Shown one piece after another: positions 6,795-29,485 of a stretch of DNA of 64,000 nt. Location of the stretch: assembly GCF_004116495.1 (NCBI RefSeq), contig NZ_PDKC01000001.1:1-64000 (forward strand), read 5' to 3'. Position 1 is the stretch's first letter, and every line of letters begins with the position of its first letter. Under the pieces are notes generated by a model. That model did no database searches, was not told where the DNA came from, and saw nothing but the letters and a program-made list of their open reading frames with translations. Origin of the DNA: Arcobacter sp. CECT 8985. GTDB lineage: Bacteria; Campylobacterota; Campylobacteria; Campylobacterales; Arcobacteraceae. A program made the position numbers and the translations under genes.

Positions 6795-6805
6795 AATTCA
6801 CCTCT

Positions 6806-7369
6806 TTATTCAAGTTTTTTATTATATCTAATTCTTTTTTTCAACCCTAAACCCATAACTTTATCATCTGTCTTTTTTGTATCTTCAAGTATTTGAGTGA
6901 GTAGTTCAAAGGCTGTTTTGATATGTTTAGTATTTTCTATTGTTTGATTTTTATTTAGTTTCAAATCTTCTTTTAGATTTTTTAACTCTATTACTATATC
7001 TTTGTAAGTAAGTGCAAACTCTCTAAGCTTTGTAAAGGTTCGCATGATATTTATAGTTACATCTGTGGCAACTTTGCTTTTTAGTACAGTTGCAAGCATA
7101 TAGACGCCTTGCTCGGTAAAAGCGTATGGTATAGCTCTTGTTTTAGAAAACTTTGTGGTCACAAATTGTGACCGCAAAACTTCAAGCTCTTCTTTTGTAA
7201 GTTGAAACATAAAATCATATGGAAAGCGATCGATGTTTCTTTTTACAGCTTGGTTTAAAACTTTTGTTTCAACTTCATAAAGTGAAGCCAAATCACTATC
7301 TAGCATCACTTTTAAACCTCTTATCTCATATATTTTATTTTCTATAAAATTAGTTGGTAAGTTTTCCAT
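6806..7369 (-). CDS. ORF6N domain protein (phage-type DNA-binding protein)
   Basis: A 187-aa protein with an N-terminal ORF6N domain: IYEIRGLKVMLDSDLASLYE, then NRFPYDFMFQLT-type and AFTEQGVYMLATVLKS-type segments (residues about 10-110). The C-terminus is a coiled-coil helix (about 120-175). ORF6N domains are known from phages and mobile elements, often as antirepressor-like DNA-binding modules. The gene heads a three-gene unit with the KAP NTPase and GNAT genes. An 11-bp perfect inverted repeat overlaps its start codon, suggesting autorepression. There is no neighbouring phage structural gene, so this is a domesticated or cassette-borne copy. Confidence 0.85.
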   Translation of the reverse strand: MENLPTNFIENKIYEIRGLKVMLDSDLASLYEVETKVLNQAVKRNIDRFPYDFMFQLTKEELEVLRSQFVTTKFSKTRAIPYAFTEQGVYMLATVLKSKVATDVTINIMRTFTKLREFALTYKDIVIELKNLKEDLKLNKNQTIENTKHIKTAFELLTQILEDTKKTDDKVMGLGLKKRIRYNKKLE

Positions 7370-7404
7370 AGAATTACTCCATAATGAATATAAAGTAATT
7401 CTAT
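7368..7404. promoter_or_regulatory. Inverted repeat over the ORF6N start codon
   Basis: Perfect 11-bp arms ATAGAATTACT (7368-7378) and AGTAATTCTAT (7394-7404) separated by 15 nt. The left arm overlaps the ATG of the ORF6N gene. Position and length suggest an operator for autoregulation. Confidence 0.6.
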
Positions 7405-7431
7405 CAATATTTTTTATAAATAATAAAAAAT

Positions 7432-7446
7432 ATTACATAATGTAAT
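7432..7446. promoter_or_regulatory. Second palindrome upstream of ORF6N
   Basis: ATTACAT A ATGTAAT, a 15-bp palindrome sharing the ATTAC/GTAAT core with the larger inverted repeat 30 nt away. It lies between dapE and the ORF6N gene. Confidence 0.45.
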
Positions 7447-7451
7447 TAAAT

Positions 7452-8552
7452 CTAAAAGTTCTTAATCAAGTCCATATAAACATCAGCTAAGCCCTCTACT
7501 TCTTTAACTGTTGTTCTTTCCCCTACACTATGAATAGTATCATTTATAACACCAAATTCAATAGCTTCTATTCCAAATGCTCCGAAATATCTAGCATCAC
7601 TTGTTCCACCTGCTGTTGAGTGTTTTGTAGTTACGTTAAGGATTTTTTCAATAGAGTTTTCCATAGCTTTTACCACTTTTGATTCTTTATTTGTTACAAA
7701 AGGAAATGAGCCTTGTGTAGTTCTAAAGTCATACTCTAAACCTTCTAAGTTTTTATGTATGAAGTTTTCTACATCTTCTCTTTTTGTATTTGTTGAGTTT
7801 CTTACATTGAACATAAGTTTTAAATCTGGTGGTGTTACATTTGTTACTTGCATTCCACCTCTAATATCTGTGATTACCATCTTGCTTGGTGCAAAATATT
7901 CATCACCATTATCAAGATTATGTCCTGCTAGTTTTGGTAAAATTTCTGCAAAATTGTGTACTGGATTTATACATTTTTCTGGATATGCTGCGTGACCTTG
8001 CTTACCTTTTATAGTGATATATCCGTTTATACTTCCTCTTCGCCCTACTTTAATAGCATCACCAAAAACATCTTCACAAGTAGGTTCTGCAACTACTGCA
8101 TATTGAGGAATAAAATCTATCTCTTTTAAGTGTTCAAGCATTTTGATAGTTCCATAAGTTCCTTCGCCCTCTTCGTCACTTGTCATCAAAATACTTAGCG
8201 TTCCATCAAAATCAACGGCGTGTTTACAAGCATATAAAAAAGCAGCATCTCCACTTTTCATATCTTGTGTTCCACGTGCTGTAATTACTCCATCTATAAT
8301 ATCAGCAGCAAAAGGATCAACATCCCATCCTTCACCTACTGGAACTACATCAATATGTCCGGCAAAACATAAGTGTTGCTTTTTGTCATTGAATTTTTTA
8401 TAAAAAAATCTATTTTTTACACCTTCCATATCAACTTTGATACAATTCCAAGTATCTCCAAGATACTCCTCAATAAAATCAAAAGCTCCATCATCATCTG
8501 GTGTAAGCGATTTAAATCGTAATAATTTTTGAAATAACTCTATAACTGTCAA
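7452..8552 (-). CDS. dapE: Succinyl-diaminopimelate desuccinylase
   Basis: A 366-aa M20-family zinc metallohydrolase that removes succinate from N-succinyl-LL-diaminopimelate in lysine and peptidoglycan-precursor synthesis. Diagnostic motifs: FAGHIDVVPVGEGW (metal-binding His and Asp), ARGTQDMKSG, TSDEEGEGTYGT (the catalytic Glu pair), VAEPTCEDVFG, and near the C-terminus GGTSDARYFGAFGIEAIEFG with the last metal ligand His in NDTIHSVGE. The length is normal for bacterial DapE. It is the upstream neighbour of the ORF6N cassette but has no functional link to it. The TSUP transporter lies upstream, 35 nt away, on the same strand. Confidence 0.96.
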   Translation of the reverse strand: MTVIELFQKLLRFKSLTPDDDGAFDFIEEYLGDTWNCIKVDMEGVKNRFFYKKFNDKKQHLCFAGHIDVVPVGEGWDVDPFAADIIDGVITARGTQDMKSGDAAFLYACKHAVDFDGTLSILMTSDEEGEGTYGTIKMLEHLKEIDFIPQYAVVAEPTCEDVFGDAIKVGRRGSINGYITIKGKQGHAAYPEKCINPVHNFAEILPKLAGHNLDNGDEYFAPSKMVITDIRGGMQVTNVTPPDLKLMFNVRNSTNTKREDVENFIHKNLEGLEYDFRTTQGSFPFVTNKESKVVKAMENSIEKILNVTTKHSTAGGTSDARYFGAFGIEAIEFGVINDTIHSVGERTTVKEVEGLADVYMDLIKNF

Positions 8553-8587
8553 ATCCTCTCCTTTTATCTGCGCAATTCTATCAAATA

Positions 8588-9391
8588 CTAGATAAAAGAA
8601 AAAAGCATTTTAACACTTAAAGATACTAAAAGTAGAGAAAAAACTCTTTTTACAATCCCAACAGGTAAACTATGAGCAAGTTTTACTCCAATTGGTGCAG
8701 TAAAATAACTACAAATTGCAACAAAGAAAAAAGCTGGTAGTGAAACATATCCTAAAGTATAATTTGATAAATCTGTGTTACTCCAGCCATTTATAATAAA
8801 TCCTATTGTTCCACTAACAGCTATAGGAAAACCTATCGAAGCACTTGTTCCTATTGCTTTTCGAATATCAACATTTTGCCAAATAAGATATGGAACAGTC
8901 AAAGAACCACCACCTATTGAAACCATTGCAGAGATTGCACCAATAATTGTTCCTGCAGTGAATTGACCCTTTGAATCAAGAAGTTTTCTGCTTGGTTTTG
9001 GTTTTTTATTTATAAACATTTGAATTGATACATATGCCATAAATATGGAAAAGAAAATAGCTAAATAAAATGAGCTTAGAAGTGAAGCTAAAAAAGTAGC
9101 CAAAAAAGTACCTATGATTATTCCTGGAGTCATCATTTTAAATACACTCCAAAGAACAGCACCTTTTTTATGATGTGCTCTAAAACTTGAGAATGAAGTA
9201 ACAATAATTGTAGCCATTGATGTTCCAAGAGCTAAATGGATTATATTTTCAGAATCCATTCCTTGCATTGCAAAAATTGTAACAAGAGAAGGCACGATAA
9301 TACCTCCTCCACCAATTCCAAGAAGTCCTGCTGCGATGCCAACAAAACAACCAAGAAGAATATAAAGTAAAAGTGATTCAATTCCTATCAT
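8588..9391 (-). CDS. TSUP family sulfite/sulfonate-type permease (TauE/SafE)
   Basis: A 267-aa inner-membrane protein with about eight hydrophobic helices in two repeats. Each half carries the family glycine-rich motif: GLLGIGGGGIIVPSL near residue 25 and AMVSIGGGSLTVPYL near residue 155. TSUP proteins are thought to export or import sulfur-containing organic anions or sulfite. It lies directly downstream of a YeiH-type exporter gene (48-nt gap) that is divergent from a LysR regulator, so the pair may handle a toxic sulfur compound. The substrate is not determined by sequence. Confidence 0.88.
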   Translation of the reverse strand: MIGIESLLLYILLGCFVGIAAGLLGIGGGGIIVPSLVTIFAMQGMDSENIIHLALGTSMATIIVTSFSSFRAHHKKGAVLWSVFKMMTPGIIIGTFLATFLASLLSSFYLAIFFSIFMAYVSIQMFINKKPKPSRKLLDSKGQFTAGTIIGAISAMVSIGGGSLTVPYLIWQNVDIRKAIGTSASIGFPIAVSGTIGFIINGWSNTDLSNYTLGYVSLPAFFFVAICSYFTAPIGVKLAHSLPVGIVKRVFSLLLVSLSVKMLFSFI

Positions 9392-9439
9392 AATTAGTCC
9401 TGTAAATTATAAAGAAATTTTATCACTTCGTTTCTTACA

Positions 9440-10474
9440 TTATGCTACAACTGCATTAGCAAATTTTACAATATAAAAACCACCGACCATTAACCATGCA
9501 AAAAGAATAATTGCTAAATATACAGGTTTTGCTCCAACATTTTTAAATTTATCAATGCTTGTTTCCATACCAAGTGCTGACATTGCCATTGTTAATGCAA
9601 AAGTATCTAAACTATTGATTGTAGATACTGCTTCTTGAGGTAAAAAACTAAAAGAATTAAAACCAACAACTACAATAAACATAACTGCAAACCATGGTAT
9701 TGTAATTTTTGATGCTTTATTTTTAGTTTTATCTTTTACGCTTTTTGCTAACCAAATTGATAAGAAAATTAAAAATGGTGCAATCATCATCACTCTTATC
9801 ATTTTTACAACAATAGCATTTGAACTTGCAACAGGTCCAACTGCATTACCTGCAGCAACAACATGTGCAACTTCATGTATAGTTCCACCAATATATATTC
9901 CCATTGATGCTTCATCTAAAGGAATAAAACCAGCTTTAAATAAAAATGGATATAAAAACATTGCAATTGTTCCAAATAGTACAACAGTTGATACTGCAAT
10001 TGCACTTTTGTATGGTTTTGCATTGATTACAGGTTCTGTTGCTAAAACTGCTGCAGCACCACAAATAGAGCTACCTGCTGTTGTTAAGATAGTTGTATCT
10101 CTATCAAGTTTAAGTATTTTTGTTCCAACTATATAACCAATAATAAAAGTTAATGATACTATTAATGCACTAACTAAAATACCTCTTAATCCAACTGTTT
10201 CAATACTTTGAAATGTAAGTCTAAACCCATAAAAAACGATACCAGTTCTTAAAATTGTTTTAGTAGAAAATATTATTCCTGGTTGCCACTCTTTAGGTAA
10301 TTTATTTCTTAATGTATTTGCATATATCATCCCTAAAACAATACCAATAATTAAGGGACTTATTCCTATAGATTTAAATACGTGAAAATCAGAAAGAAAA
10401 GTTGCAGCACATGAAAATAAGGCTACAAATAAAATACCACTTAAAGTATTTGCTCTATTATCTTTTGTAAACAT
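9440..10474 (-). CDS. YeiH/UPF0324 family putative sulfate or sulfite exporter
   Basis: A 344-aa inner-membrane protein with about ten transmembrane helices. Family landmarks are GIVFYGFRLTFQSI, TTAGSSICGAAAVLATEPVI (the conserved SICG motif) and GGTIHEVAHVVAAGNAVG (the HEV-H pocket motif). It is transcribed divergently from a LysR-type gene, the same arrangement as yeiH and yeiE in Escherichia coli, where YeiE responds to sulfite. The TSUP gene follows it. I infer a sulfite-detoxification module; the transported ion is not proven. Confidence 0.87.
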   Translation of the reverse strand: MFTKDNRANTLSGILFVALFSCAATFLSDFHVFKSIGISPLIIGIVLGMIYANTLRNKLPKEWQPGIIFSTKTILRTGIVFYGFRLTFQSIETVGLRGILVSALIVSLTFIIGYIVGTKILKLDRDTTILTTAGSSICGAAAVLATEPVINAKPYKSAIAVSTVVLFGTIAMFLYPFLFKAGFIPLDEASMGIYIGGTIHEVAHVVAAGNAVGPVASSNAIVVKMIRVMMIAPFLIFLSIWLAKSVKDKTKNKASKITIPWFAVMFIVVVGFNSFSFLPQEAVSTINSLDTFALTMAMSALGMETSIDKFKNVGAKPVYLAIILFAWLMVGGFYIVKFANAVVA

Positions 10475-16027: not shown

Positions 16028-19000
16028 TTAATTGTTTTTAAGCTTTTCTAAATAATTTATAATATCTTTAGCCTCATTTTGTTGTTTTGCAATTTCTAAA
16101 CATAAAGAAACATCTGCACCATTTTCTATAAAAATTTCTACTTTTTTGTGTTCTATTTCTCTAGGTTTTTTTTCATATGAAATAAAACCAACTTGTCTTT
16201 CACCAACAAATTCCATTGTTTTTATATACATTAAAAGCGCAGGTTCAATATTTTTATGATAATTTATATCTAAGCCCATTTCAACAAGTTTTATAAGCAT
16301 ATTTTTAAACACTTCATTAGGTATATCTAAGTTTACAATTTGATGTAAAACTGTAAAATTAAATTCATTTACTTTATTTGGTTCAAGATTTCCTGAATTA
16401 TATAGTTTATTTACAAAATATCTATCGCTTGATAGGCTTGCATAATAAAGAGGTAAATTTCCTTTTGAACAAGCCTGATTAACATCAGCATCAAAATTAA
16501 TTAAAGTATCAAAGATTTCCCTATATCCATAATCTATGGCATATATAAGAGCTGTTGCTCCATCATCGCTTACTAAATTTATGTCTGCTTTTGCATTTAC
16601 TAAATCAGTAATTATTTTACTTTTTATTGTCTCAAATCTAAAATCCAAATCATAACTATATTTACCTAATACAGCAAAATGTATTGCACTTTCATTGTTT
16701 TCATTAACATGATTTACATCAGCACCTCTTTGTAATAATTCTTTTAATACATGAGTTGTTCCCACATTTGCAGCAACCATCAAAGGTGTCATTTGATCAC
16801 TATCAAACTGTTCTATATCTACACCTAAGTCAAGTAATGTTTTTATACTATCAAGTCTTTGCAATGGATCAATAAAAGAGTAATTGGCGATTGCTTTATG
16901 TAAAGCAGGACAATTATCAAAACCACCTACAATATGAATATTTGCACCTTTATTAGCAAGCCATCTTAAAACTTTTGCATGACAACTCATAGCAGCATTT
17001 AATAAGATAGTAGAATTCATACTATTTTTATACTCTAAATCAAAAGGTTCTTTTTCCCAACAATAGTCTAAATATTCAACAATAAGTTTATCATCATGCA
17101 AAAATCTAACTATTGAATGAATAGAAAATTCATTAAAACACTCTTTTACTGGTTTTATCAAACTTCCACCATATTTATAAAATAAATCATATAACTCTTT
17201 ATTTAATCTATTTTCATTTTTTGCTCGAATGAAAATAGAATGTCCTTTGGCATATCTTTTATCATTATGTTCAAATTTATAAGCCAAATTAATATCAGCA
17301 CCATTTTCTAAAAGAATTTGTATAGCTTTAAAATATTTATTATTTTTATCTAAATCTTTAGCTAATTCGGCAAGACATAATAATAATGTTCCTTTTGATA
17401 AATATTCCCCTAGAGTATCATCTTCTATTTCAAAAATATAATATCTATTTATATTATTATCTTTTTTAATGATTTTTTCAAAAATCTCTAAAGAATAGAA
17501 TCTTGACTTAACAATATCTAAAGTAATAGGTTCAATCTCATTGTATGCTTTTATAGTAGGATAAGTTTCTAAAACATAATAAATAAACTCTTCAGATAAA
17601 TAATTTTCAAAAGCTAAATGTATAATATTTGCATTTGATTTTTCACCAAATCTTTCATAATAATCTTTTCTTTCATAATATGGATTTATTTTAATGATCT
17701 CTTTTAATAAAATATCTTTTTTAAGATATTTTATTGCATAATAAATAGACTCTTCATCTTTAATTTCAATATTATTTTCAAAAATATAATCAATAAGTCT
17801 AAACTCATTTTCAATACAAAAAATAGCAAAAAAAGAAATAAGTTCATCTTCAAATTTTTTATCTTTTGTTTCATATTTAACTTGAGTATTAATATTTAAA
17901 CCTGAATTAATAAGCAGTTGTAAGACTTCTCTTTTTTTAACTACACTATTTAAATTTATATGTTCTTTATAAAAATAATTAATTACCCCTTCTTTTTCAT
18001 TATTTACAAAATTTGTATTTGCATTAAATGATAAAAGAAGTTCTATTAAAGGAATATTATATTCACTAATTGCATGAAATAGAGCACTATTTCCACCATA
18101 TTCAATCTTTGCACCATTTTCTAATAAAAATTTGGCAACACAAATATCTTTTCCTATAAATAAATTTTTACAAACTATAAATAGTGTATTTTTATCATCA
18201 CTCACAGTAAAATTTATATCAGCTTTTTTTGAAAGAGCTATTTGTAATAATTCAACCTTTTCATTCTCTTTTAATCTAGTATTTATAACAATCTGATATA
18301 CAATATTTTTATGACTTAAATCATCATACTCTTGCATATAACTTTCTATTCTTGATTTTACAAATAAACATAAAAAGTCATCTATATTTTTACCTTGGCT
18401 TTTAATAGAATCTATAATATATTCTAAATCTTTTATAGTTAGCATATTATTTATTATATAAGTATAATCAGAAAAATCTGCTCCTAATAAAATCAACTCT
18501 TTTAAAGATCTAGTATCACCAACATTAATAGCTTGTTTTACTAAATTATTCCCTTCTTCATCTTTTATATTTAAATCTAATTTATTTAACCTATTTAACA
18601 GATGTAAAGTTTTTGCTTTCGTAGAAGGACTAAGACTAGTGTTTATTAATCTTGAAACAAAATTGATATTTTTTTCTTCATTTAAAGGGCATCCAGCTTG
18701 GATTAAAACTTCTAAAACTTCATATTCTCTATTATTAAATACTGCAAATTCTAAAGGTGTGTATTTTTCATACTGCTCTTTTGTATCTTCGTCAATTAAA
18801 TCTTTTGATATTTTTCTTTCTAAACTATCCATAGGAATATCAAGTTCAATCAAATATTCTATAAAATCTAATGGTGCATTTTCAACTGAGATTGCCATAA
18901 CAGCACTTTTCCCTGAGATTACTTTATATCCAACGTCAATAAAAGTTTTTAAAACTTCTTTATTACCTGTATTTATGATAGTACTTATTGCACTACCTCC

Positions 19001-19300
19001 AAGCATCTCTTTTGCATCTTCAAAATCACAACCTAATTCAAAAAGATATTTTATAACTTCAATTCTTTTATTAATCGTTGCATAATATAAAGGCATCTTA
19101 AAATTATCATCTGCTTGCCTACAATTAGAACTATTGATTTTTGTTTTTAAAATATTAAAATCATTATATTTTATGATCTCTTCTATAGTTTCTGTATCTT
19201 TTATATTATCAATATCAAAAAAGTTTGTACTCTCTTGTTCATTTGAGGTAAGTCCTTTTCCCTCTTTATTTTCTCCAAATAACTTATCTAAAAAGGACAT
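16028..19300 (-). CDS. Giant ankyrin-repeat protein 1
   Basis: A 1,090-aa protein made almost entirely of degenerate ankyrin repeats. Clear units include TPLMVAANVGTTHVLKELLQ, then RGADVNHVNENNESAIHFAV, and NLPLYYASLSSDRYFVNKLY. There is no signal peptide and no transmembrane helix. The first 25 residues are a short charged leader beginning MSFLDKLFG, like the MSFFKNFM leader of the next paralogue. The central block around NIHIVGGFDN-PALHKAI is nearly identical to the same block in the second protein, which proves recent common origin. Its ATG overlaps the stop codon of the upstream paralogue (TAATG), so translation is coupled. Ankyrin repeats bind proteins; the partner is unknown. Confidence 0.85.
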   Translation of the reverse strand: MSFLDKLFGENKEGKGLTSNEQESTNFFDIDNIKDTETIEEIIKYNDFNILKTKINSSNCRQADDNFKMPLYYATINKRIEVIKYLFELGCDFEDAKEMLGGSAISTIINTGNKEVLKTFIDVGYKVISGKSAVMAISVENAPLDFIEYLIELDIPMDSLERKISKDLIDEDTKEQYEKYTPLEFAVFNNREYEVLEVLIQAGCPLNEEKNINFVSRLINTSLSPSTKAKTLHLLNRLNKLDLNIKDEEGNNLVKQAINVGDTRSLKELILLGADFSDYTYIINNMLTIKDLEYIIDSIKSQGKNIDDFLCLFVKSRIESYMQEYDDLSHKNIVYQIVINTRLKENEKVELLQIALSKKADINFTVSDDKNTLFIVCKNLFIGKDICVAKFLLENGAKIEYGGNSALFHAISEYNIPLIELLLSFNANTNFVNNEKEGVINYFYKEHINLNSVVKKREVLQLLINSGLNINTQVKYETKDKKFEDELISFFAIFCIENEFRLIDYIFENNIEIKDEESIYYAIKYLKKDILLKEIIKINPYYERKDYYERFGEKSNANIIHLAFENYLSEEFIYYVLETYPTIKAYNEIEPITLDIVKSRFYSLEIFEKIIKKDNNINRYYIFEIEDDTLGEYLSKGTLLLCLAELAKDLDKNNKYFKAIQILLENGADINLAYKFEHNDKRYAKGHSIFIRAKNENRLNKELYDLFYKYGGSLIKPVKECFNEFSIHSIVRFLHDDKLIVEYLDYCWEKEPFDLEYKNSMNSTILLNAAMSCHAKVLRWLANKGANIHIVGGFDNCPALHKAIANYSFIDPLQRLDSIKTLLDLGVDIEQFDSDQMTPLMVAANVGTTHVLKELLQRGADVNHVNENNESAIHFAVLGKYSYDLDFRFETIKSKIITDLVNAKADINLVSDDGATALIYAIDYGYREIFDTLINFDADVNQACSKGNLPLYYASLSSDRYFVNKLYNSGNLEPNKVNEFNFTVLHQIVNLDIPNEVFKNMLIKLVEMGLDINYHKNIEPALLMYIKTMEFVGERQVGFISYEKKPREIEHKKVEIFIENGADVSLCLEIAKQQNEAKDIINYLEKLKNN

Positions 19301-22300
19301 TATAAGCTACTTTCAAGATATGATATTGCTTCAGGAGCTATACCTTCTACATTTTTTACACTATTTAATGCTACTTGAACATCAGAACCTAAATTTATTA
19401 ATTCATCTGCTAAATCTTTAAGTCCTGCTAAAACAGCAAAAGCTAAAGCATTTCCTCCATCTGGATGTCTTTCATTTATATTAGCACCATTTTCAATCAA
19501 AAATTTTGCTACTTCAATTCTTTTGCTTTGATCAATATCTAAATTACTATAACAAGCCCAATGTAAAGGGGTGAAACCAGTTAAATCTTTTTGATTAAAA
19601 TCATCAAACATATCTTTTATTACATATAAAGCTTTAAGATTTACATAATAAGCTGAAATATGAAGAAGGTCTCTATTATTATATCCTTTTCCTATTTCTA
19701 TATTTTGAGAAAGGAAGTATTTAAGCATTTTTATACTCTCATCTTCATTTTCTCTTCTAATTGCATAATAATGTATAGATTCATTATATGAATCTATAAT
19801 ATCAATTTTTACACCTTTACTCATTAAACTATTTACATAATACATATCAGCATAACAAATTGCAAGCATAAGAGGTGTTCTACCTTGCATATCTTTTGCA
19901 TTTAAATCAAGTTCTAATTGTAACAATACATCATAAATCTCTTTTTTACCATAAAGAATACTTAAATGTAAGGCAGGTACAACTTCAGCAGAAGATTTAT
20001 TTAAATCTAATCCTGCATCTTTTAATAAAGCTAATATTTTTGAATATACTAAATTAGAATTATCTTTATCATCATATGCTTCAACATCAGTCATAATAGC
20101 CCTATGAGCAATACCCTCACCTGCTTCATTATAAAAGTTTATATTTGCTCCTGCATCTACTAAAACTCTTGCTACTTCAAAACAACCATAATTTGCAGCA
20201 CTCATTAAAGGTGTAAACTGTTCAGAATCTATTTGTTCTATATCACAACCTGCATCTATTAAGACTTTTACTGTTTGAGCTCTTAATAATGGATCTATAA
20301 AATGAGAATAATTTGAAATTGATTTATGTAAAGCTGGAGAATTATCAAAACCACCTATTACATGAATGTTTGCACCTTTATCAATAATCCATTTTAAAGT
20401 TTTTGGTCTATTCATCATACAAGCACCAAGTAAAATATCTGTACCCATTGTATTTTTATGTTCTAAATCTACTTTGTAACCTTTTTGGTCTAAATATTCT
20501 AAATATTGTAAACATTTTTCATCACTAATTTGTGTATATCTGTTTATAATAGAATGCATTTGAGATTCATTTAGATTTGAAACAGGTGCATAAGGATCAA
20601 CATTATTTTGAAGTAAGAAATCTACTACTTTAGATTCAAAATGTTTTGAATATATAGCGTGATTAAGAAATATTCCTCTAGAGCCTAGAGATTTATTTTC
20701 ATAGTTTAATTTTGTAAAAGGAATTGATAAATCAGCTCCACATTCAACCATTAAAGATAATAACTCTATTTTTTCATCTTCATTAAAACGATTATGATAA
20801 GCATCTAATAAAAATATTGGCAAAGAACAAGTTTCAATACCATCTGGTTCACAATAATATAATCTATTTATATTTTTATCAAAAGAAATTATCTTTTTTA
20901 TTGTATCTATGTTAAACTCTACATTTATTGCTTTTAAAGCCAAAGGATAAGTATCAGAATAAGATTTTACATCAGGAAAATTATCCATAATAAAATTTGT
21001 TAAATCTTCTTTATAATTTAAAATAGATAGTTCAAAAATTCCTGCATTAAAACTTTTTTTTCTAACATTACAATATACTTCATTTTCAAATACTACATTT
21101 GGATTTTTACAAATAACTTTTTTTGATGTTTCAAAATCTAAATCTCGTTCAATTGCAAATTTCACAACTCTATTGGTTATTTCAAGTTCAGGAAATTTTT
21201 CTAAAAGATATTCTATAAACTCTGATTGACATACATCAACAGCAGCTTCCAAAATAGGTGTATAATTTGTACTTGAATTCTGATAATGAGAACTTTTAAG
21301 ATTAATATCAAGACCATTATCTAATAATAATTCTAACATTGCAATACGTTCTTTTTCATTTGCAAACTTTGCATCTGGTAAAATAATAGAATTTATTGCA
21401 GTATTTTCAAAATAATTTACATAATTTACATCAGCACCCTTTTCTAAAAGATGTTTAACTAAATCAATATCATTATCTACAATTGGCACAAAAAGTGCTG
21501 ATTGTTTTTCACACTCAATCTTACAACCACAATCAATTAAAAAGTCCAATAAAAGTGTATTTTTACCAATTACAAAGTTAGCAGTAAAAGCCCAAAGAGC
21601 ATTTGTAGGATGTTCTTTATTACTTAACTCATTTATATCTGCACCTTTTTCTAATACAAGTTTTATTAACTCGATTTTTTCTTTATCATGAAATAAATGA
21701 CTTAATGAGATAGAATGAATAAGCCCTTTTCCTTTTGTATTATCAAGCCCTTGAATATACTCTTTATATGATTTAAAATCTAAAATAGGGCTAATGTATT
21801 CCATTTTATTTTGAGGTGATTTTAAGATATATGGAAGAAGTTTTTTAACTTCTCTTTCTCCTAATTTATTAACTAAATGTTCTGCAATTGAATTTACTCT
21901 TGCACCTAATTTTATTACAACTTTTAAAAGTTCATAATCTTCTTTATTAAAAAGTCTTGTTGATATGTGAAGCACTTTCTCTTCTTCATTTATATCAAAA
22001 TCATATTCTTCTACTAATAAAGTTAGAAGTTTTCCTTTTGTTTTAGTATCAATAGTTTCACTATCTGCTATTTCATGAATTAAATAATCATTATTTTGGG
22101 GTCTTGATGTTCCAAAATTTCTAAATAAGTATTCAAATACCTCGAAAGAACTTCCTTTGTTTAGTGCCATATTTAAGGGAGTTGTACCATAATCAGATTC
22201 TATACTTGCTCCAAATTCATGTAAATATTTAATTATTTCCAACGATGCATTATAAGAAATCACATAAGATAAAATACTTTCACTATCTATAGTCTCTTCT

Positions 22301-22518
22301 AAAATAGCACCATTTTCTAATAAATATTTTGTTACATCTAAACTTGAAAATTGTAATGCAAAATCAATTGGTCTTTGAAAATTATTATCTTCTTTATTAA
22401 TATCTTCCATTGGCAATATTTTTTTAACTTTTTTTACATTATTTTTTTTGATAGCTTCTATTAATTCGTCACTTGTTGGCTCTGAATTACTATTCATAAA
22501 ATTTTTAAAAAATGACAT
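19300..22518 (-). CDS. Giant ankyrin-repeat protein 2
   Basis: A 1,072-aa ankyrin-repeat protein, the middle gene of three tandem paralogues. It contains many 33-residue units with the ankyrin core, for example TPLMSAANYGCFEVARVLVD then AGANIN, and TPLHWACYSN near the C-terminus followed by FLIENGANINERHPDGGNAL. It lacks signal peptide, membrane helices and any catalytic domain I can see. It shares a non-ankyrin-like linker (the NINRLYYCEPDG segment, about residue 540) with both neighbours. The stop codon shares one base with the start of ankyrin gene 1, while 85 nt separate it from ankyrin gene 3 upstream. A cytoplasmic scaffold role is possible; secretion by an unusual route cannot be excluded. 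Confidence 0.85.
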   Translation of the reverse strand: MSFFKNFMNSNSEPTSDELIEAIKKNNVKKVKKILPMEDINKEDNNFQRPIDFALQFSSLDVTKYLLENGAILEETIDSESILSYVISYNASLEIIKYLHEFGASIESDYGTTPLNMALNKGSSFEVFEYLFRNFGTSRPQNNDYLIHEIADSETIDTKTKGKLLTLLVEEYDFDINEEEKVLHISTRLFNKEDYELLKVVIKLGARVNSIAEHLVNKLGEREVKKLLPYILKSPQNKMEYISPILDFKSYKEYIQGLDNTKGKGLIHSISLSHLFHDKEKIELIKLVLEKGADINELSNKEHPTNALWAFTANFVIGKNTLLLDFLIDCGCKIECEKQSALFVPIVDNDIDLVKHLLEKGADVNYVNYFENTAINSIILPDAKFANEKERIAMLELLLDNGLDINLKSSHYQNSSTNYTPILEAAVDVCQSEFIEYLLEKFPELEITNRVVKFAIERDLDFETSKKVICKNPNVVFENEVYCNVRKKSFNAGIFELSILNYKEDLTNFIMDNFPDVKSYSDTYPLALKAINVEFNIDTIKKIISFDKNINRLYYCEPDGIETCSLPIFLLDAYHNRFNEDEKIELLSLMVECGADLSIPFTKLNYENKSLGSRGIFLNHAIYSKHFESKVVDFLLQNNVDPYAPVSNLNESQMHSIINRYTQISDEKCLQYLEYLDQKGYKVDLEHKNTMGTDILLGACMMNRPKTLKWIIDKGANIHVIGGFDNSPALHKSISNYSHFIDPLLRAQTVKVLIDAGCDIEQIDSEQFTPLMSAANYGCFEVARVLVDAGANINFYNEAGEGIAHRAIMTDVEAYDDKDNSNLVYSKILALLKDAGLDLNKSSAEVVPALHLSILYGKKEIYDVLLQLELDLNAKDMQGRTPLMLAICYADMYYVNSLMSKGVKIDIIDSYNESIHYYAIRRENEDESIKMLKYFLSQNIEIGKGYNNRDLLHISAYYVNLKALYVIKDMFDDFNQKDLTGFTPLHWACYSNLDIDQSKRIEVAKFLIENGANINERHPDGGNALAFAVLAGLKDLADELINLGSDVQVALNSVKNVEGIAPEAISYLESSL

Positions 22519-22603
22519 CTAAAACCTTTTTAATTAATTATTTTTGCTAAAATACTAGCTTTTATTGACTTTTAGTATAGTTAAATCACACAATTATATT
22601 TCC

Positions 22604-25600
22604 TTATGAAAAAGGTTTTAACTTTGATTGTAAATATTCAATTTCCTCATCAAAGTCATTTAATTGCTTTAATATACTTATACTTACTTGAATATCAGTA
22701 CCTAAATCTATTAATCGATTTTGTAAATCAAAATGCGCCTTATACATTGCAAGAATTAAAGCATTCTTTCCATCAACTGTTCGTAAATTTACATCTGCAC
22801 CATTTTCAATAAATAGCTCTAATAGCTTCATTCTATCTTTTTCATAAGCATATGTATTAGAATAACAAACCTCATGTAAAGGAGTAAAACCTCTAATATC
22901 TTTTATATTCATATTTGTAATATATGGTTTGATTACAGAAAATAGTTCTACTTTTACATCAGATGCTATATGATGAAGTAAAGAAAATCCATCTTTACCA
23001 CTTGCTATTTCAATATCTTGTGATAAAAAATATTTTAATAGCATTACAGACTCTTGAGTATTATTCCTATTCAAAACATAAAAATGGATTGACTTATTGT
23101 CATTATCAATTAAATCAATCCTAACTTTTTTAGTAATAAGAGCATTTACATAATAAATATTTGCATAAGCTACTGCTACCATTAAAGCTGTTCTTCCTTG
23201 AGAATCAAGAACATTTAAATCAATATCTAAATTTAATAAAGTGTTAAAAATTACTTTTTTATTTTTTAGTATACTTTGATGTAAAATAGGATAAATATGT
23301 TCTGAATAATAATTTAAATTAGCCCCATAATCTTTTAGCAAAGCTAAAATTTTAGAACGATAAAGTTCAGATTCTTCACTATTTTCATGCATTGTCATAA
23401 TAGTATTTAATACAACTGTAACTGCACACTCTCCTCTTTCATTACAAAAGTTTACATTAGCACTTGCTTCTAAAAGTGTTTTTACAATTTCAAAAGATGC
23501 ATATTGACAAGCATACATTAATGCAGTGTATTGATTTGAATCTACTTTTTCAATATCACATCCAAGTTCAATTAAAGTATTTACAGTTTGGGCTCTTTTT
23601 ATTGGATTTAATTTATCATAATGACTTACAGCATAATGTAAAAGTGTAAAACCATTAATCTCATTTACAATATTAATTTTAGCACCCTTTGAAGCTAAAT
23701 ATTTTATACATAAAGCCTTATTCACCATAGAAAGACCAATTAAAATATTTCTAGAATCAATACTTTCTGATTCAAAATCTATAGTAAAACCTTTTTCATC
23801 GAAATATTTCAAATATTTTAAGCCTAATTCATCAGATACAGAATAAAATCTAGTTAACAAAGTTACTAATTGAGATTCATTTTGATTAGATGTAGCTTCA
23901 AAAGGGTCTTGATTTTGTTCCAATAAAACATCCATAATTTTTGGTTCAAATTTATTACAATAGATTCCATGAATTGCAATAGAACCCAATTCTGTGATTG
24001 CATCTTTACTATCATCAAGATATTTATAAGGGATTGAAACATCAGCACCATTTTTTATCATCTGTTTTAATAACATCGCCTTATCATCTTCATTTAAAAC
24101 TTCTGCACAATTTTTAAGTAAGCCTATTACACTAGTAAACTTTGCATTAGTTTCACTATTTTCTGGTGATTCATAATATATCTTATTTAAATCAGGGTCT
24201 ATATCAATTAATTTCTTTACAGTATCAAGAGTAAAACCTTTATTTATTGCATATAAAGATAAAACATAAAATTCACTATCTTTTTTTATATCAGGATAAT
24301 TATCTATTAAATAATTTGTCAACTCCTCATTTTTATGATGTAAAGTAAGTTCTAATAAACCAGAGTCAAACCTTTGCTTTCTAACAGGACAAAATACCCA
24401 TCTTTCAAAAATCATATAAGGGTTTTTAGAAACAATTTTTTTAAGAAGGTCTATGCTTAATTTTTTACTCAAAGCTATATAAACACTAGTAGTATTTATC
24501 TTAATATCTGGTATTTTTTCTAAAATATATTCTATTAATTTTTCTTTTTGCGTATTCACAATTGCTTCAAAAAGATTTGTTGTATTTGAACTAGAATTAA
24601 TATAAAAAGTTGTTTTTAACTCTGTATCAAGTTTATTATTTAATAAAAGCTCAAACATTTGTATTTGTTCATCTTCATTTTTATATTTTGATTGTGGATT
24701 TAAAATATGATTAATAATAGTTGCTCCATTATAATCAATAAAATTAATGTTTGCGCCATTTTCTATTAAATATTTTACCAATTCAATATCATTGTTTGAA
24801 ACAGCACTAAAAAGTGCTGATTGTTCTTCTTGTTCTATTTTTGCACCATTTTTTATCAAAAATTGTAAATACTCAAATGAGTTTTCTTTTTTATAATATT
24901 TTGTAATAAACTGCCAAAAAATATTAGTAGGATTATCTAATTCTACTATTTCATTTATATTTGCACCCTTTTGCAAAATTATTTGAGATAGAGTTATCTT
25001 TTCTTTTTCATTTAAAAATTGATTTATAATTATTGGAATGAAAAAATTTTCATCTTTTACTTTGTCTAAGCCTATTAAGTATCTTTCAAAAGTATCAAAA
25101 TCGTAAATACAAAGACAATCATTTATATTATTTATTTCATATTTTTTCATATAAAAAACTAACTCTTTTACCTTTGCTTCAGTAAAAAATTCAGGTAGTG
25201 CAAAAGCAACTTTATTTACACATAAACCTAGTTTTACTAACTCTTCAAATAAGTAAAACTCATTATTTCCCAAAAGCTTTGAAGCTAAATCAATTACTTC
25301 TTCATTTTCATTAATATCATAATTATGTTCATTAATTAAAAAGTTAATTATCTTAATCTTTACATTATCACCGATAACTTCAGAATCAATTACCTCTTCT
25401 ATTACTCCCCTTGCACTCTCATACCTTTTAATTCCAAAATTATTAACTACAAATTTGAAAGTTTCGAAATCAGTTCCATTTTCTAAAAGTTGATCTAAAG
25501 GTAAAGAATCTCTTTCTTTATTAAATTCATCCATATCTTTCATAAATTCAAGTAATTCAAGGGAAACATTCCTACTTAAAAGATATGATAGCTTACTACT

Positions 25601-25816
25601 ACCATTTAAAATAAAATCAAAGCTAATTTTATTTTCTAATAAATACTTAGTAATATTTATACTTGAGAACTCAATAGCATAAACAATAGGCATAAAAAAA
25701 TTTGAATTTTGTTTTTTTAAATATTCTTCATTTATCAAATTTTTAAACTCTTGAATATTATCTTTTTGGATTATATTAATTAATTCGGGGTTATTAAAAT
25801 CTATGGAATCTAACAC
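22604..25816 (-). CDS. Giant ankyrin-repeat protein 3
   Basis: A 1,070-aa ankyrin-repeat protein and the promoter-proximal gene of the array. It parallels protein 2 along its length: the C-terminal units LNVLDSQGRTALMVAVAYAN and GFTPLHEVCYSNTYAYEKDR match positions in protein 2. It has no signal peptide or membrane helix. The N-terminus lacks the MSFF/MSFL leader of the other two and starts directly with a repeat-like segment (MLDSIDFNNPELINIIQKDN). Divergence from proteins 1 and 2 is larger than between those two, so this copy probably split off first. The promoter must lie in the 98 nt between it and mutS2. Function unknown. Confidence 0.85.
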   Translation of the reverse strand: MLDSIDFNNPELINIIQKDNIQEFKNLINEEYLKKQNSNFFMPIVYAIEFSSINITKYLLENKISFDFILNGSSKLSYLLSRNVSLELLEFMKDMDEFNKERDSLPLDQLLENGTDFETFKFVVNNFGIKRYESARGVIEEVIDSEVIGDNVKIKIINFLINEHNYDINENEEVIDLASKLLGNNEFYLFEELVKLGLCVNKVAFALPEFFTEAKVKELVFYMKKYEINNINDCLCIYDFDTFERYLIGLDKVKDENFFIPIIINQFLNEKEKITLSQIILQKGANINEIVELDNPTNIFWQFITKYYKKENSFEYLQFLIKNGAKIEQEEQSALFSAVSNNDIELVKYLIENGANINFIDYNGATIINHILNPQSKYKNEDEQIQMFELLLNNKLDTELKTTFYINSSSNTTNLFEAIVNTQKEKLIEYILEKIPDIKINTTSVYIALSKKLSIDLLKKIVSKNPYMIFERWVFCPVRKQRFDSGLLELTLHHKNEELTNYLIDNYPDIKKDSEFYVLSLYAINKGFTLDTVKKLIDIDPDLNKIYYESPENSETNAKFTSVIGLLKNCAEVLNEDDKAMLLKQMIKNGADVSIPYKYLDDSKDAITELGSIAIHGIYCNKFEPKIMDVLLEQNQDPFEATSNQNESQLVTLLTRFYSVSDELGLKYLKYFDEKGFTIDFESESIDSRNILIGLSMVNKALCIKYLASKGAKINIVNEINGFTLLHYAVSHYDKLNPIKRAQTVNTLIELGCDIEKVDSNQYTALMYACQYASFEIVKTLLEASANVNFCNERGECAVTVVLNTIMTMHENSEESELYRSKILALLKDYGANLNYYSEHIYPILHQSILKNKKVIFNTLLNLDIDLNVLDSQGRTALMVAVAYANIYYVNALITKKVRIDLIDNDNKSIHFYVLNRNNTQESVMLLKYFLSQDIEIASGKDGFSLLHHIASDVKVELFSVIKPYITNMNIKDIRGFTPLHEVCYSNTYAYEKDRMKLLELFIENGADVNLRTVDGKNALILAMYKAHFDLQNRLIDLGTDIQVSISILKQLNDFDEEIEYLQSKLKPFS

Positions 25817-25889
25817 ACAATGCCTTGTAAAATTATTTTTTTGATTTTAATATTATCAATTTAATTATTTTATACATATTAAAATTATT

Positions 25890-25917
25890 AAAGATTAATA
25901 CATAAGTATTAATCTTT
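25890..25917 (-). terminator. Terminator of mutS2
   Basis: A 12-bp perfect stem AAAGATTAATAC / GTATTAATCTTT with a 4-nt loop at the mutS2 stop codon, followed on the minus strand by a T-rich stretch (TAATAATTTT). It insulates mutS2 from the ankyrin array. Confidence 0.65.
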
Positions 25918-28135
25918 ATAGTTTAATAATCTTGGCACCAAATCCACCCTGACTTGGATGAGCATCAGTGTAACCCTTTATTTTAGGATGTTTATCTAAA
26001 AATGTTTTTACTGCAAAAGATAATTTACCTGTTCCAATGCCATGGTAAACAAGAACTTCATCAAATCCTGCAATAAGTGCATCTGATAAAAATTTATCTA
26101 AGTTTTCAATTGCCTCATCTGCTCTTTGTCCATGTAAATCAAGTGTAACATGTCCACTCTCGGGTTTTGAAACTGTAACAGTAGCTTTTTGTTTAACTTG
26201 TGGTTTTGGAATATTACCACTTCGTGATAACTCTTCCAATGGTACTTTCATTTTCATTCCAGAATCATTTTCAAAAAAAGCTTGTTTACCTTTTATAGAT
26301 ACTAAAATACCTTTTGAACTTCTATATTTTACTCTATCACCTACTTTTAAATCTTCATGCTCTTTTACTTTTTCTGTTTTAATATTTGAAGCCTTTGAGT
26401 GTGCAGTATTTAAATGCCTATGACCTTCTTGATAAATTTTTGCTTTTATTGCTTTTTTAGCTTCATCTCTTGCATCTTTATACTCTTTTTGTAATTTAGA
26501 TTTTTCCGAATAAATCAATTCATCTAAACTCTCTCTTTGATCTTTTAAACCTCTTTGTAATCTTTTTGTCTTTTCTAACTCTTCATCAAGTTTTTGTATC
26601 TTTTGTTTATATTCTCTTTCTAAATCGCTACTTCTTTCAATAAGTTCATTTAATTTATCTTTATCTTCACCATAAACTTTTTTAGCTAGTTTTACAATAT
26701 TATGGGGAATCCCATATCTACTTGCAGTTTCAAAAGCATATGACTTTCCAATAGTACCTTGTAAGAAATCATATGTTGGTCTTTGGTTTGCTTCGTCGTA
26801 AAGTGCAGCAATTAACTCTACATCATCATTTGAAGCAAGAAGTGCAGCCAATCTTTTATGGTGAGTTGTTATGATAATTTTAATATCTTTTTTTATTAAC
26901 TCTTCGATTATTACTTTAAATAAACTTGCAGCTTCATCTGAATCAGTTCCTAATTCAATCTCATCAACACCAACTATTGCATTTCTTTGTGTGAATAAAG
27001 TTGAAAATTCCACCATTCTACCAGCAAAAGTAGAAATATCATTTTTAACACTTTGTGGATCATCTAAAACTGCTAATATGTTTTTGAAATTTCCTATTTG
27101 AGATGATTTATCTGCATAGTAAGGAATTAAATATTTTGACATAAATACTGAAGCTAAAATTGATTTTAGCATCATTGTTTTACCACCTGCATTTACACCA
27201 GTAATCATAATAACTGATTTGGAAAAATCAACATTTATTGGTTTTGCTCCACGTAATGCGGGATGTTTAAAATCAATCAATTTACAACTATTTTTTTTAC
27301 TTGGTATTAAAAAGTTTTTATCATCTGCTTTAGCAAAAAATAACCTTGCTTGATAATGATCAAATCTATCAAACTCTTTATTTACAAATTTTAGAAATAA
27401 TAGATGTTTTTCAAACATTGTTGAAATTTGTTTACAAAGTTTTAAAACTATTTCTTCTTGTTTGTTTATTAAGTCACTTCTTTTTTGCTTCAATTCACTA
27501 ATTGAGTGAGGAACAATATAGAAAAATCCAGAATTAGATCTATGTATTACTGTTGCTTTTAAAACATGATTAAAACCACCTCTTACTAAAATTGCCTCTT
27601 GGTCATTTACTAAGTGAACTTGAGAATCAACTAAATATGGTTTTAGCTTTGATGAATTTATTGTTTTATGTAGATTTTGTCTAATTAACTCTTTGTTTTT
27701 ATAGATTGCATTTTGAATATTATCAAAATCATCATCTACACCCTCTTTTAAATTCCCCTTTGAATCAAAAAAATCATCTAAACTTAGAATATCATCTGGA
27801 ATTACTATTTTATCAATCCACTCTTTTAATTTTCCCTCAAAATTAAACTTTTTTAAGTATAAGAAATATCTAATTATTTTTGTAAATTCATAGATATCAT
27901 CAAGTTTTAAAACACCTTGTTTTTGAATATGAACTAAGCATTTATCTAAATTTGCAACCTGCTTTGGTGCAGTAAAATCATACTTTGAAAGTTCATTTAT
28001 AAGTTTATAATGTAAATTTATATCACCTTCAAGAATAATATTTTTTCTTCTTGAAAAAAGCTCTTGAAATGTCTCTAAATATTCTGTTAAGTCTAGTTTT
28101 TTTATTATATCTTGCATAACGCGTATTATAGCCAA
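25916..28135 (-). CDS. mutS2: Endonuclease MutS2
   Basis: A 739-aa MutS2 protein. The MutS-type ATPase core shows Walker A GVNAGGKT (about residue 314-321) and a Walker B strand AIVGVDEIELGTDSDEAASL. A long coiled coil follows (about 480-590, rich in Glu, Lys and Arg). The C-terminus is an Smr domain with VTLDLHGQRADEAI and YHGIGTGKL, the nuclease-associated motifs. MutS2 lacks the mismatch-recognition domain of MutS. It acts on branched DNA (recombination suppression) or on stalled ribosomes, depending on the species. It sits 15 nt downstream of the DASS transporter and ends in a strong hairpin. Confidence 0.95.
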   Translation of the reverse strand: MAIIRVMQDIIKKLDLTEYLETFQELFSRRKNIILEGDINLHYKLINELSKYDFTAPKQVANLDKCLVHIQKQGVLKLDDIYEFTKIIRYFLYLKKFNFEGKLKEWIDKIVIPDDILSLDDFFDSKGNLKEGVDDDFDNIQNAIYKNKELIRQNLHKTINSSKLKPYLVDSQVHLVNDQEAILVRGGFNHVLKATVIHRSNSGFFYIVPHSISELKQKRSDLINKQEEIVLKLCKQISTMFEKHLLFLKFVNKEFDRFDHYQARLFFAKADDKNFLIPSKKNSCKLIDFKHPALRGAKPINVDFSKSVIMITGVNAGGKTMMLKSILASVFMSKYLIPYYADKSSQIGNFKNILAVLDDPQSVKNDISTFAGRMVEFSTLFTQRNAIVGVDEIELGTDSDEAASLFKVIIEELIKKDIKIIITTHHKRLAALLASNDDVELIAALYDEANQRPTYDFLQGTIGKSYAFETASRYGIPHNIVKLAKKVYGEDKDKLNELIERSSDLEREYKQKIQKLDEELEKTKRLQRGLKDQRESLDELIYSEKSKLQKEYKDARDEAKKAIKAKIYQEGHRHLNTAHSKASNIKTEKVKEHEDLKVGDRVKYRSSKGILVSIKGKQAFFENDSGMKMKVPLEELSRSGNIPKPQVKQKATVTVSKPESGHVTLDLHGQRADEAIENLDKFLSDALIAGFDEVLVYHGIGTGKLSFAVKTFLDKHPKIKGYTDAHPSQGGFGAKIIKL

Positions 28136-28150
28136 AGGGCTATAATACTT

Positions 28151-29485
28151 TTATAAATAGTATTGCCAATATACTAAGGCAACTAATGTAATAGATATAA
28201 TTCCTAAGAAATTAAATATTAATCCAAATTTTGCCATATCTTTTACTTTTACTGCACCACTACTCATAGCAATAGCATTTGGTGGTGTTGCAATAGGAAG
28301 CATAAAGGCATATGAAGCACAGATTGTTGATACAAATAAGATAAGATTCACATCGATATTTGCAGCTTTTCCTAACGAATAAATAATTGGTAAAGCAATT
28401 GAAATCAATGCAGTATTTGATGTAACTTCAGTTGTAAAAGTAATTAATGAAGCAACAAGTAAAATTAATAAAATAACAGGCATATGAGTTAACGCAAGTA
28501 AATAGTTTGCAATTTCATTTGCAAGACCTGTTGATGAAAATGCTGATGCAATTGAAAAACCAGCACCAAATAAGAAAATAATTTCATATGGAATTTTCTT
28601 TGTATCTTCCCAATTTAAAAAACCAAATTTAGGCATAAACATCAATAATCCATACCCAAGTAAGATTCCTTTTTCATTTAATCCTAAACCTGAATAATAA
28701 GGTTCTATTTTTGAATTTACAAACAGTAATAGAACTAAACTACCCAAAATATAAAGTAATCTTCTTTGATCTTTTGTCAAATGTTCTCTTTGTTCTAAAT
28801 GTGTATCAAATTTAAGATGATTAACACCTAATGAAAGAACATATGGAATTAAAATTAGCATAACCACTACAAGTGGCAATGAAAGAACAATCCATTGTAC
28901 AAAGGCAATAGGTTCAATATTATTTTCTTCCATAAACCCTAATAATATAAGGTTAGGAGGTGTTCCAATTGGAGTTAAAATACCTCCAATACTTGCACCA
29001 TATGCAATAGCAAGAACTAGTCTAATTTTTAATTTTATATCTTTTGTTAAAAACATTGCAATTGGAATTAATAATAAAGCAGTTGTAGTATTTGAAATAA
29101 GCGAACTTAATACAGCAGATGTAATTGCTAATGAAAAAATAATCCCTCTTGGAGTATTAGGGAAAAGAGTTAATAGTTTATTTGAAACATATTTATGTAA
29201 ATCTGTTTTTTGAGTTGCAATTGCAATCATAAAACCACCCAAAAATAAAAAAACAATTGATTTTGAATAGTTTGCAGTTGTTGCACTTGTACTCATAATA
29301 TCAAATGAGGGGAATAAAAGTATTGGAAATAAAGAAACAACACCCAATGGTAAAGCTTCATTTGTCCATAATGTAACTAGAAAAACTATAATTGCTAATA
29401 AGATTGAATGTTGAGTATTAAATGCAAAACTAGCAATCAAAAAAGTAGCTAATGTTAAAATCAATGTAGTCAATAATTTTTTCAA
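28151..29485 (-). CDS. DASS/SLC13 family sodium-anion symporter
   Basis: A 444-aa inner-membrane transporter with about eleven hydrophobic helices. Both halves show the substrate/sodium motif of the divalent anion-sodium symporter family: LISNTTTALLLIPIAMF and TSNTALISIALPI. These are followed by the TPPN motifs (GTPPNLILLGFM and ATPPNAIAMSSG). Likely substrates are dicarboxylates, phosphate or sulfate; the sequence does not choose between them. The gene precedes mutS2 on the same strand. Its 5' region holds four TTACAT repeats (29598-29653) that may be regulatory. Confidence 0.92.
   Translation of the reverse strand: MKKLLTTLILTLATFLIASFAFNTQHSILLAIIVFLVTLWTNEALPLGVVSLFPILLFPSFDIMSTSATTANYSKSIVFLFLGGFMIAIATQKTDLHKYVSNKLLTLFPNTPRGIIFSLAITSAVLSSLISNTTTALLLIPIAMFLTKDIKLKIRLVLAIAYGASIGGILTPIGTPPNLILLGFMEENNIEPIAFVQWIVLSLPLVVVMLILIPYVLSLGVNHLKFDTHLEQREHLTKDQRRLLYILGSLVLLLFVNSKIEPYYSGLGLNEKGILLGYGLLMFMPKFGFLNWEDTKKIPYEIIFLFGAGFSIASAFSSTGLANEIANYLLALTHMPVILLILLVASLITFTTEVTSNTALISIALPIIYSLGKAANIDVNLILFVSTICASYAFMLPIATPPNAIAMSSGAVKVKDMAKFGLIFNFLGIISITLVALVYWQYYL

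What the first reader, a model, noticed from the sequence alone, without database searches (positions are those of the whole stretch)
16028..25816. Tandem array of three giant ankyrin-repeat proteins
Three adjacent genes encode 1,090-, 1,072- and 1,070-aa proteins with no domain other than ankyrin repeats. Long blocks are nearly alignable between copies, and genes 1 and 2 are coupled by a TAATG overlap. Ankyrin-only proteins this long are rare in free-living bacteria and usual in host-associated ones. Together they occupy 15 percent of the window. They may act as a scaffold, effector or immunity set; no signal peptide shows how they would leave the cell.
Basis: partly seen in the sequence, partly recalled or inferred. 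Interest (0 to 1): 0.68.

Follow-up and report, generated by a model that had tools for sequence, protein, structure and literature searches.

The report
Paired giant ankyrin proteins, mosaically evolving
A genus of marine bacteria carries matched pairs of giant proteins made only of about 30 ankyrin repeats; one end of one partner diverges fast while the rest of the pair is copied between genes and species, a pattern that hints at an unknown recognition system inside the cell.

Summary
The three genes are real and all-ankyrin, but 'tandem array of three' misses the unit. The genome is a Malaciobacter (marine Campylobacterota). The unit is a conserved two-gene operon, B then A, joined by a 1-nt TAATG overlap; the third gene, B', is an extra, strongly diverged B seen only in this genome. 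All six Malaciobacter genomes held carry a B-A pair; three, including this one, carry a second cluster (B-B-A). No other Campylobacterota searched had one, but Fulvivirga sediminis (Bacteroidota) has the same B-A pair in the same order (B about 48% identical), so it has crossed phyla. AlphaFold models of A and B are continuous ankyrin solenoids with a disordered N-terminus.

Evolution is mosaic. In cluster II the C-terminal part of the two B copies is homogenised by gene conversion within each of three genomes. In cluster I, A and the C-terminal third of B were recently exchanged between two species, while the N-terminal two-thirds of B kept background synonymous divergence with 3-5 times the neighbours' dN/dS. 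I favour an intracellular two-subunit binder with a changing recognition face (phage or rival-toxin conflict) over a host effector or an internal scaffold. Function is inferred, not shown.

The parts
22604..25816 (-). B': extra B-type giant ankyrin gene (1070 aa, GTG start), first in the operon, without the amphipathic N-terminal peptide
   Evidence: ORF; Pfam; 41% identical to B; N-terminus; no counterpart in the other genomes
19300..22518 (-). B: giant ankyrin gene (1072 aa), about 30 ankyrin repeats, first gene of the conserved pair
   Evidence: AlphaFold mean pLDDT 87.5
16028..19300 (-). A: giant ankyrin gene (1090 aa), second gene of the conserved pair
   Evidence: AlphaFold mean pLDDT 84.5
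19298..19302 (-). TAATG: stop of B overlaps start of A by one base, likely translational coupling
   Evidence: the same one-base overlap at all eight Malaciobacter B-A junctions; 4-base gap in Fulvivirga
20509..22518 (-). Fast N-terminal part of B (residues 1-670): background dS 0.685, dN/dS 0.32 against the G005 orthologue
19303..20478 (-). Constant C-terminal part of B (residues 681-1072): dS 0.126 against the G005 orthologue, recently exchanged together with A
   Evidence: the matching part is gene-converted between B copies in cluster II
22492..22518 (-). N-terminal peptide of B, MSFFKNFMN: amphipathic, disordered in the model
19274..19300 (-). N-terminal peptide of A, MSFLDKLFG: MSFLDK invariant in all nine A proteins, two phyla
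25889..25917 (-). Hairpin directly after mutS2 (AAGATTAATAC TTAT GTATTAATCTT), possible end of the upstream transcript, so B' B A may be their own transcription unit
   Evidence: Read directly from the sequence printed; A+T-rich, so not caught by the terminator scan

Best explanation
B and A are the two subunits of one cytoplasmic binding machine, made together from a translationally coupled operon. Each is one long ankyrin groove with no catalytic domain, guided or tethered by a loose amphipathic N-terminal peptide. The C-terminal part of B and most of A are the common part, through which the subunits would meet. The N-terminal two-thirds of B is the part that meets a changing ligand, most likely a protein that enters the cell and changes fast, from a phage or a rival's toxin; binding neutralises or senses it. 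Extra B copies (B' here, the doubled B in cluster II) would widen the range served by one A. SHOWN: predicted ankyrin fold, conserved B-A order and overlap, narrow distribution plus cross-phylum presence, gene conversion of the C-terminal part, recent inter-species exchange of A and the C-terminal part of B, faster protein change in the N-terminal part of B. INFERRED: A-B contact, membrane tethering, kind of ligand, neutralisation.
For: Coupled pair kept in both clusters and in two phyla. A and B are separate old clades, each split into clusters I and II, so the partners kept together. Fulvivirga pair has its own genome's G+C and lies inside a 393-kb contig. C-terminal part of cluster II B copies homogenised in three genomes (dS 0.04-0.09 against 0.87-1.04 in the N-terminal part and 0.58-0.69 between genomes) with conflicting trees. 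Cluster I: dS 0.168 for A and 0.126 for the C-terminal part of B against 0.44-0.82 for eight neighbours; N-terminal part of B 0.685 with dN/dS 0.32 against 0.06-0.10. In the G000/G005 comparison changes are enriched in the inner helices of B (p 0.00085) and A (p 0.0021) in the N-terminal parts, the layer that makes most toxin contacts in the solved ankyrin immunity protein Tli (PMC11470151).
Against: No ligand, phenotype or A-B contact is known. dN/dS of 0.32 is below 1, so relaxed constraint also fits. Inner-helix enrichment is reversed in two other comparisons and is weak after allowing for some 30 tests. No toxin or defence gene is regularly next to the pair, and no phage or plasmid carrier was found. 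Presence in all six Malaciobacter genomes is more core-like than most defence systems.
Confidence: 0.4

Rival explanations
1. Genus-specific internal scaffold: A and B form a stable scaffold for the cell's own proteins (envelope, motility, division). Divergence of the N-terminal part of B is relaxed constraint on repeats, and homogenisation of the rest is ordinary gene conversion between neighbouring copies.
For: Every Malaciobacter genome held has at least one pair. dN/dS is below 1 throughout. Best fold matches are long animal ankyrin scaffolds. A and B have no catalytic domain.
Against: Absent from all other Campylobacterota searched, present in one lone Bacteroidota species, moved to different gaps, with extra copies; housekeeping scaffolds seldom behave so. 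Gene conversion alone does not explain the exchange between species of A and the C-terminal part of B.
Confidence: 0.25
2. Secreted effectors acting in cells of marine animals or protists, as ankyrin effectors of Legionella, Coxiella or Anaplasma do.
For: Ankyrin proteins are enriched in host-associated bacteria (PMC3932732); the NCBIfam hits are to Dot/Icm ankyrin effectors, though only through the repeat.
Against: No visible signal peptide; no fused catalytic domain; T4SS VirB4 in only two of six genus genomes; no T6SS VipB in G001, which has the pair; pair also in a Bacteroidota species named from sediment. T1SS export was not excluded: G001 has a type I export locus nearby, and other routes were not tested.
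Confidence: 0.12
3. No cell function of its own: a long-lived repetitive gene pair kept and spread by recombination between its many repeats.
For: Position shifts, extra copies and gene conversion; no phenotype known.
Against: Twenty-two intact frames of 1,044-1,209 codons across seven genomes without a stop, dN/dS well below 1, no transposase or integrase seen at the borders, and cluster I B kept at 1069-1073 residues even between phyla.
Confidence: 0.05

Closest known systems
Ankyrin-repeat immunity proteins of bacteria (Imm-ank, PMC3482391; Tli, partner of Tle6 lipases, PMC11470151; C. jejuni T6SS region, PMC8285248)
   Same: Ankyrin-only bacterial proteins that bind and neutralise a protein; in Tli the inner helical layer makes most contacts
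   Different: Tli has six repeats, against about 30 here; those are encoded next to a toxin, and no toxin gene sits regularly beside the B-A pair; those are not coupled giant pairs
Dot/Icm T4SS ankyrin effectors (AnkX, AnkY, AnkH and others)
   Same: Bacterial proteins with ankyrin repeats; weak matches through the repeat
   Different: Scores 35-95 bits against cut-offs of 500-1400; T4SS VirB4 missing in most bearers
Wolbachia and phage WO ankyrin genes
   Same: Prokaryotic ankyrin genes with known recombination; best phage-collection matches
   Different: Match only about a fifth of A at 27-33% identity; no coupled A-B pair
Long ankyrin scaffolds of animals (ankyrin-1/AnkB, NOMPC)
   Same: Long continuous ankyrin solenoid; best fold matches
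   Different: 15-17% identity, fold only; no operon, no spectrin, death or channel domain
Modular recombination systems (type I restriction HsdS, polymorphic toxins; from general knowledge)
   Same: A divergent recognition part joined to a homogenised common part
   Different: No homology; here the contrast runs along one continuous solenoid and no enzyme or toxin is attached

Membership tests
Ankyrin-repeat proteins | Repeated helix-turn-helix ankyrin units over the protein | tested here: met
   Pfam above cut-offs; AlphaFold solenoid of about 30 repeats in B and a similar one in A
Dot/Icm T4SS ankyrin effectors | Score above the NCBIfam cut-off of a named effector | tested here: not met
   Best 94.7 bits against a cut-off of 600
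Dot/Icm T4SS ankyrin effectors | Bearer has a T4SS | tested here: not met
   VirB4 family PF03135 absent from G000, G001, G002, G003 and Fulvivirga
Ankyrin immunity proteins (Imm-ank/Tli type) | Encoded beside the cognate toxin | tested here: not met
   Neighbours differ between genomes and include no regular toxin gene; a T1SS RTX locus lies near the pair in G001 only
Ankyrin immunity proteins (Imm-ank/Tli type) | Binds and neutralises a toxin | not testable with these tools
   Needs a binding assay
MZA anti-phage system (MzaA) | Score above the MzaA cut-off | tested here: not met
   38-66 bits against 800
Candidate phage defence PDC-M72A (PADLOC) | Match beyond the generic repeat and the partner gene present | tested here: inconclusive
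   Matches up to 159 bits, in several stretches, as expected of any ankyrin protein; partner genes not looked for
Anti-phage defence in general | Sits in a defence-rich neighbourhood | tested here: inconclusive
   In the window PDC-S49 and PDC-S05 lie 9-11 kb away and a type I restriction system 29-35 kb away; other loci were not scanned systematically

The most novel reading that the evidence does not exclude
The B-A pair is the founding member of an undescribed two-subunit recognition system inside bacterial cells: one ankyrin solenoid carries a diversifying binding face, a conversion-homogenised constant part docks to the partner, and extra B copies add specificities.
Probability: 0.15. Interest if true: 0.85.

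Novelty: new variant of a known kind. Interest (0 to 1): 0.55.

Why it matters
Bacterial ankyrin proteins are mostly discussed as host effectors or small immunity proteins. Here is a coupled pair of about 30-repeat solenoids, kept by a whole genus of marine bacteria, carried to another phylum, with a sharp border between a fast-changing and a homogenised part. If the N-terminal part of B is a recognition face, this is a natural system for studying how bacteria diversify a binding surface and a source of natural long ankyrin binders. The border gives a direct experiment: separate the parts and ask what each binds.

Tried and rejected
1) Single-protein scan of genome contigs found nothing; the alignment-based scan found Fulvivirga, M. 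halophilus and a Campylobacteraceae MAG. 2) Viral contigs with A and B profiles and phages and plasmids with the proteins: only generic ankyrin matches covering under 40%; no phage or plasmid carrier. 4) Contamination as the reason for the Fulvivirga hit: rejected; the pair is inside a 393-kb contig with G+C 0.39 like its neighbours, against 0.22-0.25 for the Malaciobacter genes. 5) Dependence on T6SS: VipB missing in G001. 6) Dependence on T4SS: VirB4 missing in four of six. 7) Groove diversification as a general rule: significant in three comparisons, reversed in two, kept only as a hint. 8) A-to-B gene conversion in the shared GGFDN segment: A and B are more alike around B residues 691-760 (27-70%) than elsewhere (19-36% over most of the rest), but not more within than between genomes, so not claimed. 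9) Promoter scan no better than shuffles. 10) B' as a recent duplicate of B: rejected, 41% identical with a long branch. 11) Literature: no held paper joins ankyrin repeats and Malaciobacter; searches for ankyrin anti-phage or paired giant ankyrins gave nothing on point.
Full report
WHAT IS THERE. The window holds three intact minus-strand genes at 16028-19300, 19300-22518 and 22604-25816. I call them A, B and B'; transcription runs B', B, A. All three match only ankyrin families in Pfam (one sub-threshold hit is also an ankyrin model). B and A were modelled with AlphaFold2 from alignments of their relatives (mean pLDDT 87.5 and 84.5). B has 61 helices, about 30 helix pairs. The first 16 residues of B and the first 35 of A have pLDDT under 50. 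No signal peptide is visible. The nearest solved structures are long animal ankyrin scaffolds at 15-17% identity, so only the fold is shared.

WHOSE GENOME. The window is part of contig C11 of a 2.79-Mb assembly. G002, placed in the same genus, has a 19,559-bp contig with the pair at 6847-10059; that contig is Malaciobacter halophilus DSM 18005. So the window is from a Malaciobacter, a genus of marine Campylobacterota. The species was not established.

THE UNIT IS A PAIR. All six Malaciobacter genomes held have at least one B-A pair; none of 94 other genomes of the order did in the first search, and among 397 genomes drawn across the phylum only Malaciobacter matched the A profile (these searches scored only the best few candidates per genome, so far relatives could be missed). 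G000, G004 and G005 have a second cluster, B-B-A, elsewhere; in G000 it is contig C45. Cluster I (B-A) is in G000, G001, G002, G003 and G005. At all eight Malaciobacter B-A junctions the genes overlap by one base. B' is found only in G000. In the joint tree A and B are two separate clades and each splits into clusters I and II, so the A/B split is older than the I/II split and the partners stayed together.

ANOTHER PHYLUM. Fulvivirga sediminis (Bacteroidota) has B (1072 aa, 48-49% identical) followed 4 bases later by A (1073 aa, 40%), inside a 393-kb contig and with the G+C of its own neighbours. Both fall with cluster I. No second case was found in draws of 291, 395 and 148 genomes from its order, phylum and family, which overlap in part. 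The pair has therefore moved as a pair; direction and age are unknown.

MOSAIC EVOLUTION, CLUSTER II. The two B copies of one genome are about 37-65% identical in the N-terminal two-thirds and 92-100% identical over residues 840-1000. Synonymous divergence there is 0.086 (G000), 0.043 (G005, residues 764-1000) and 0.064 (G004), against 0.96, 0.87 and 1.04 in the N-terminal part; between genomes the same C-terminal segment of the orthologues has 0.58-0.69. The N-terminal tree groups copies by type. In the C-terminal tree the two copies of G000 and of G004 pair within their genomes with support, and those of G005 are unresolved. This is gene conversion confined to one part of the gene, in three genomes separately.

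MOSAIC EVOLUTION, CLUSTER I. Between G000 and G005, eight neighbouring genes have dS 0.44-0.82 and dN/dS 0.06-0.10. A has dS 0.168 and B residues 681-1072 have 0.126, about a quarter to a fifth of background; B residues 1-670 have 0.685 with dN/dS 0.32. The change is sharp, near residue 640-690. The simplest reading is that a block from the last third of B through most of A was exchanged between the two lineages recently, while the first two-thirds of B was not replaced and changes fast as protein. The pair also lies at different places: between mutS2 and an mscS-like gene in G000, between the DASS transporter gene and mutS2 in G005. In G005 an imperfect repeat of about 30 bp around the transporter's terminator hairpin lies at both ends of the pair; the corresponding place in G000 is empty.

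WHERE THE CHANGES FALL. For B residues 1-670 of G000 against G005, inner helices differ at 59 of 140 positions and outer helices at 47 of 191 (p 0.00085); A residues 1-720 of the same genomes show the same (17/140 against 6/187, p 0.0021), and the first cluster II B of G004 against G005 weakly (p 0.027). The second cluster II B and the cluster II A of G004 against G005 show the reverse (p 0.012, 0.028). In the C-terminal part inner helices are the conserved ones (B of G000 against Fulvivirga 0.26 against 0.50, p 0.0013). With some 30 comparisons this is a hint of a changing groove, no more. It is noted because in the solved immunity protein Tli the inner helical layer makes most contacts with the toxin (PMC11470151).

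N-TERMINAL PEPTIDE. A begins MSFLDK in all nine sequences, including Fulvivirga; cluster I B proteins begin alike (MSFFKKF or similar). In these the first nine residues are more amphipathic than 93-100% of nine-residue stretches of the same protein. Cluster II B proteins are weaker and B' lacks it. A membrane-binding helix is a guess from general knowledge of such N-termini; it is not shown.

DELIVERY. T6SS sheath VipB is present in G000, G002, G003 and G004 and not found in G001 (G005 not tested). VirB4 was found only in G004 and G005. So neither system is common to the bearers. Matches to Dot/Icm effector models and to MzaA are far below cut-offs and follow from the repeat itself.

HOW IT PROBABLY WORKS. 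Coupled translation and co-transfer argue that A and B act together. A solenoid pair with no catalytic part acts by binding. Lateral spread, extra B copies, a homogenised common part and a fast N-terminal part together are what one expects of a binder in conflict with a changing partner, such as phage proteins or toxins of rivals. I give this 0.4, a scaffold for the cell's own proteins 0.25, a host effector 0.12, and no function of its own 0.05; the rest is for readings not thought of. The window also has a PADLOC candidate pair (KAP NTPase PDC-S49 and ORF6N PDC-S05, 4944-7369) and a type I restriction system (54530-60425), which is mild support only.

NOVELTY. Ankyrin proteins are a known kind, and their enrichment in host-associated bacteria is published (PMC3932732). 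I found no paper that joins ankyrin repeats and Malaciobacter and no description of a coupled giant pair in the held library, which lacks many subscription papers. I file it as a new variant of a known kind.

Noticed in passing
window 4944-7369 (-): KAP-family NTPase (full-length match to PADLOC candidate PDC-S49) next to an ORF6N protein (PDC-S05); a candidate defence pair upstream of a short ORF.
   Followed up: partly
window 54530-61711 (-): Type I restriction-modification genes HsdR, HsdS and HsdM, followed upstream by a PemK/MazF-like toxin gene (60636-61037) and a 225-aa partner.
   Followed up: partly
window 28100-28160 (-): The mutS2 start region overlaps a hairpin after the DASS gene; the likely start is the ATG of ATGCAAGATATAATA, some codons after the listed TTG.
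   Followed up: no
L022:14083-16265 (contig C11, about 78-80 kb, outside the window): SUKH-family protein and a 106-aa ankyrin protein side by side among small ORFs; looks like an immunity-gene cluster of a polymorphic toxin.
   Followed up: partly
L031:1090-18543 and L026:4559-6660 (G001): A 4,088-aa RTX-repeat protein with type I export genes lies near the B-A pair in G001, together with a short duplicate of its N-terminus and two related membrane-protein genes.
   Followed up: partly
L030:2359-4425 (G005): A 688-aa TPR/Sel1 protein with a hydrophobic N-terminus overlaps the end of the cluster II A gene in G005 only.
   Followed up: partly
L033:5232-7364 (G005): A 710-aa protein without Pfam match sits between mutS2 and the mscS-like gene in G005, the gap that holds the ankyrin genes in the window.
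   Followed up: no
L035:16540-19431 (Fulvivirga sediminis): Two further ankyrin genes (389 and 393 aa) and a 174-aa gene without Pfam match follow the B-A pair.
   Followed up: no
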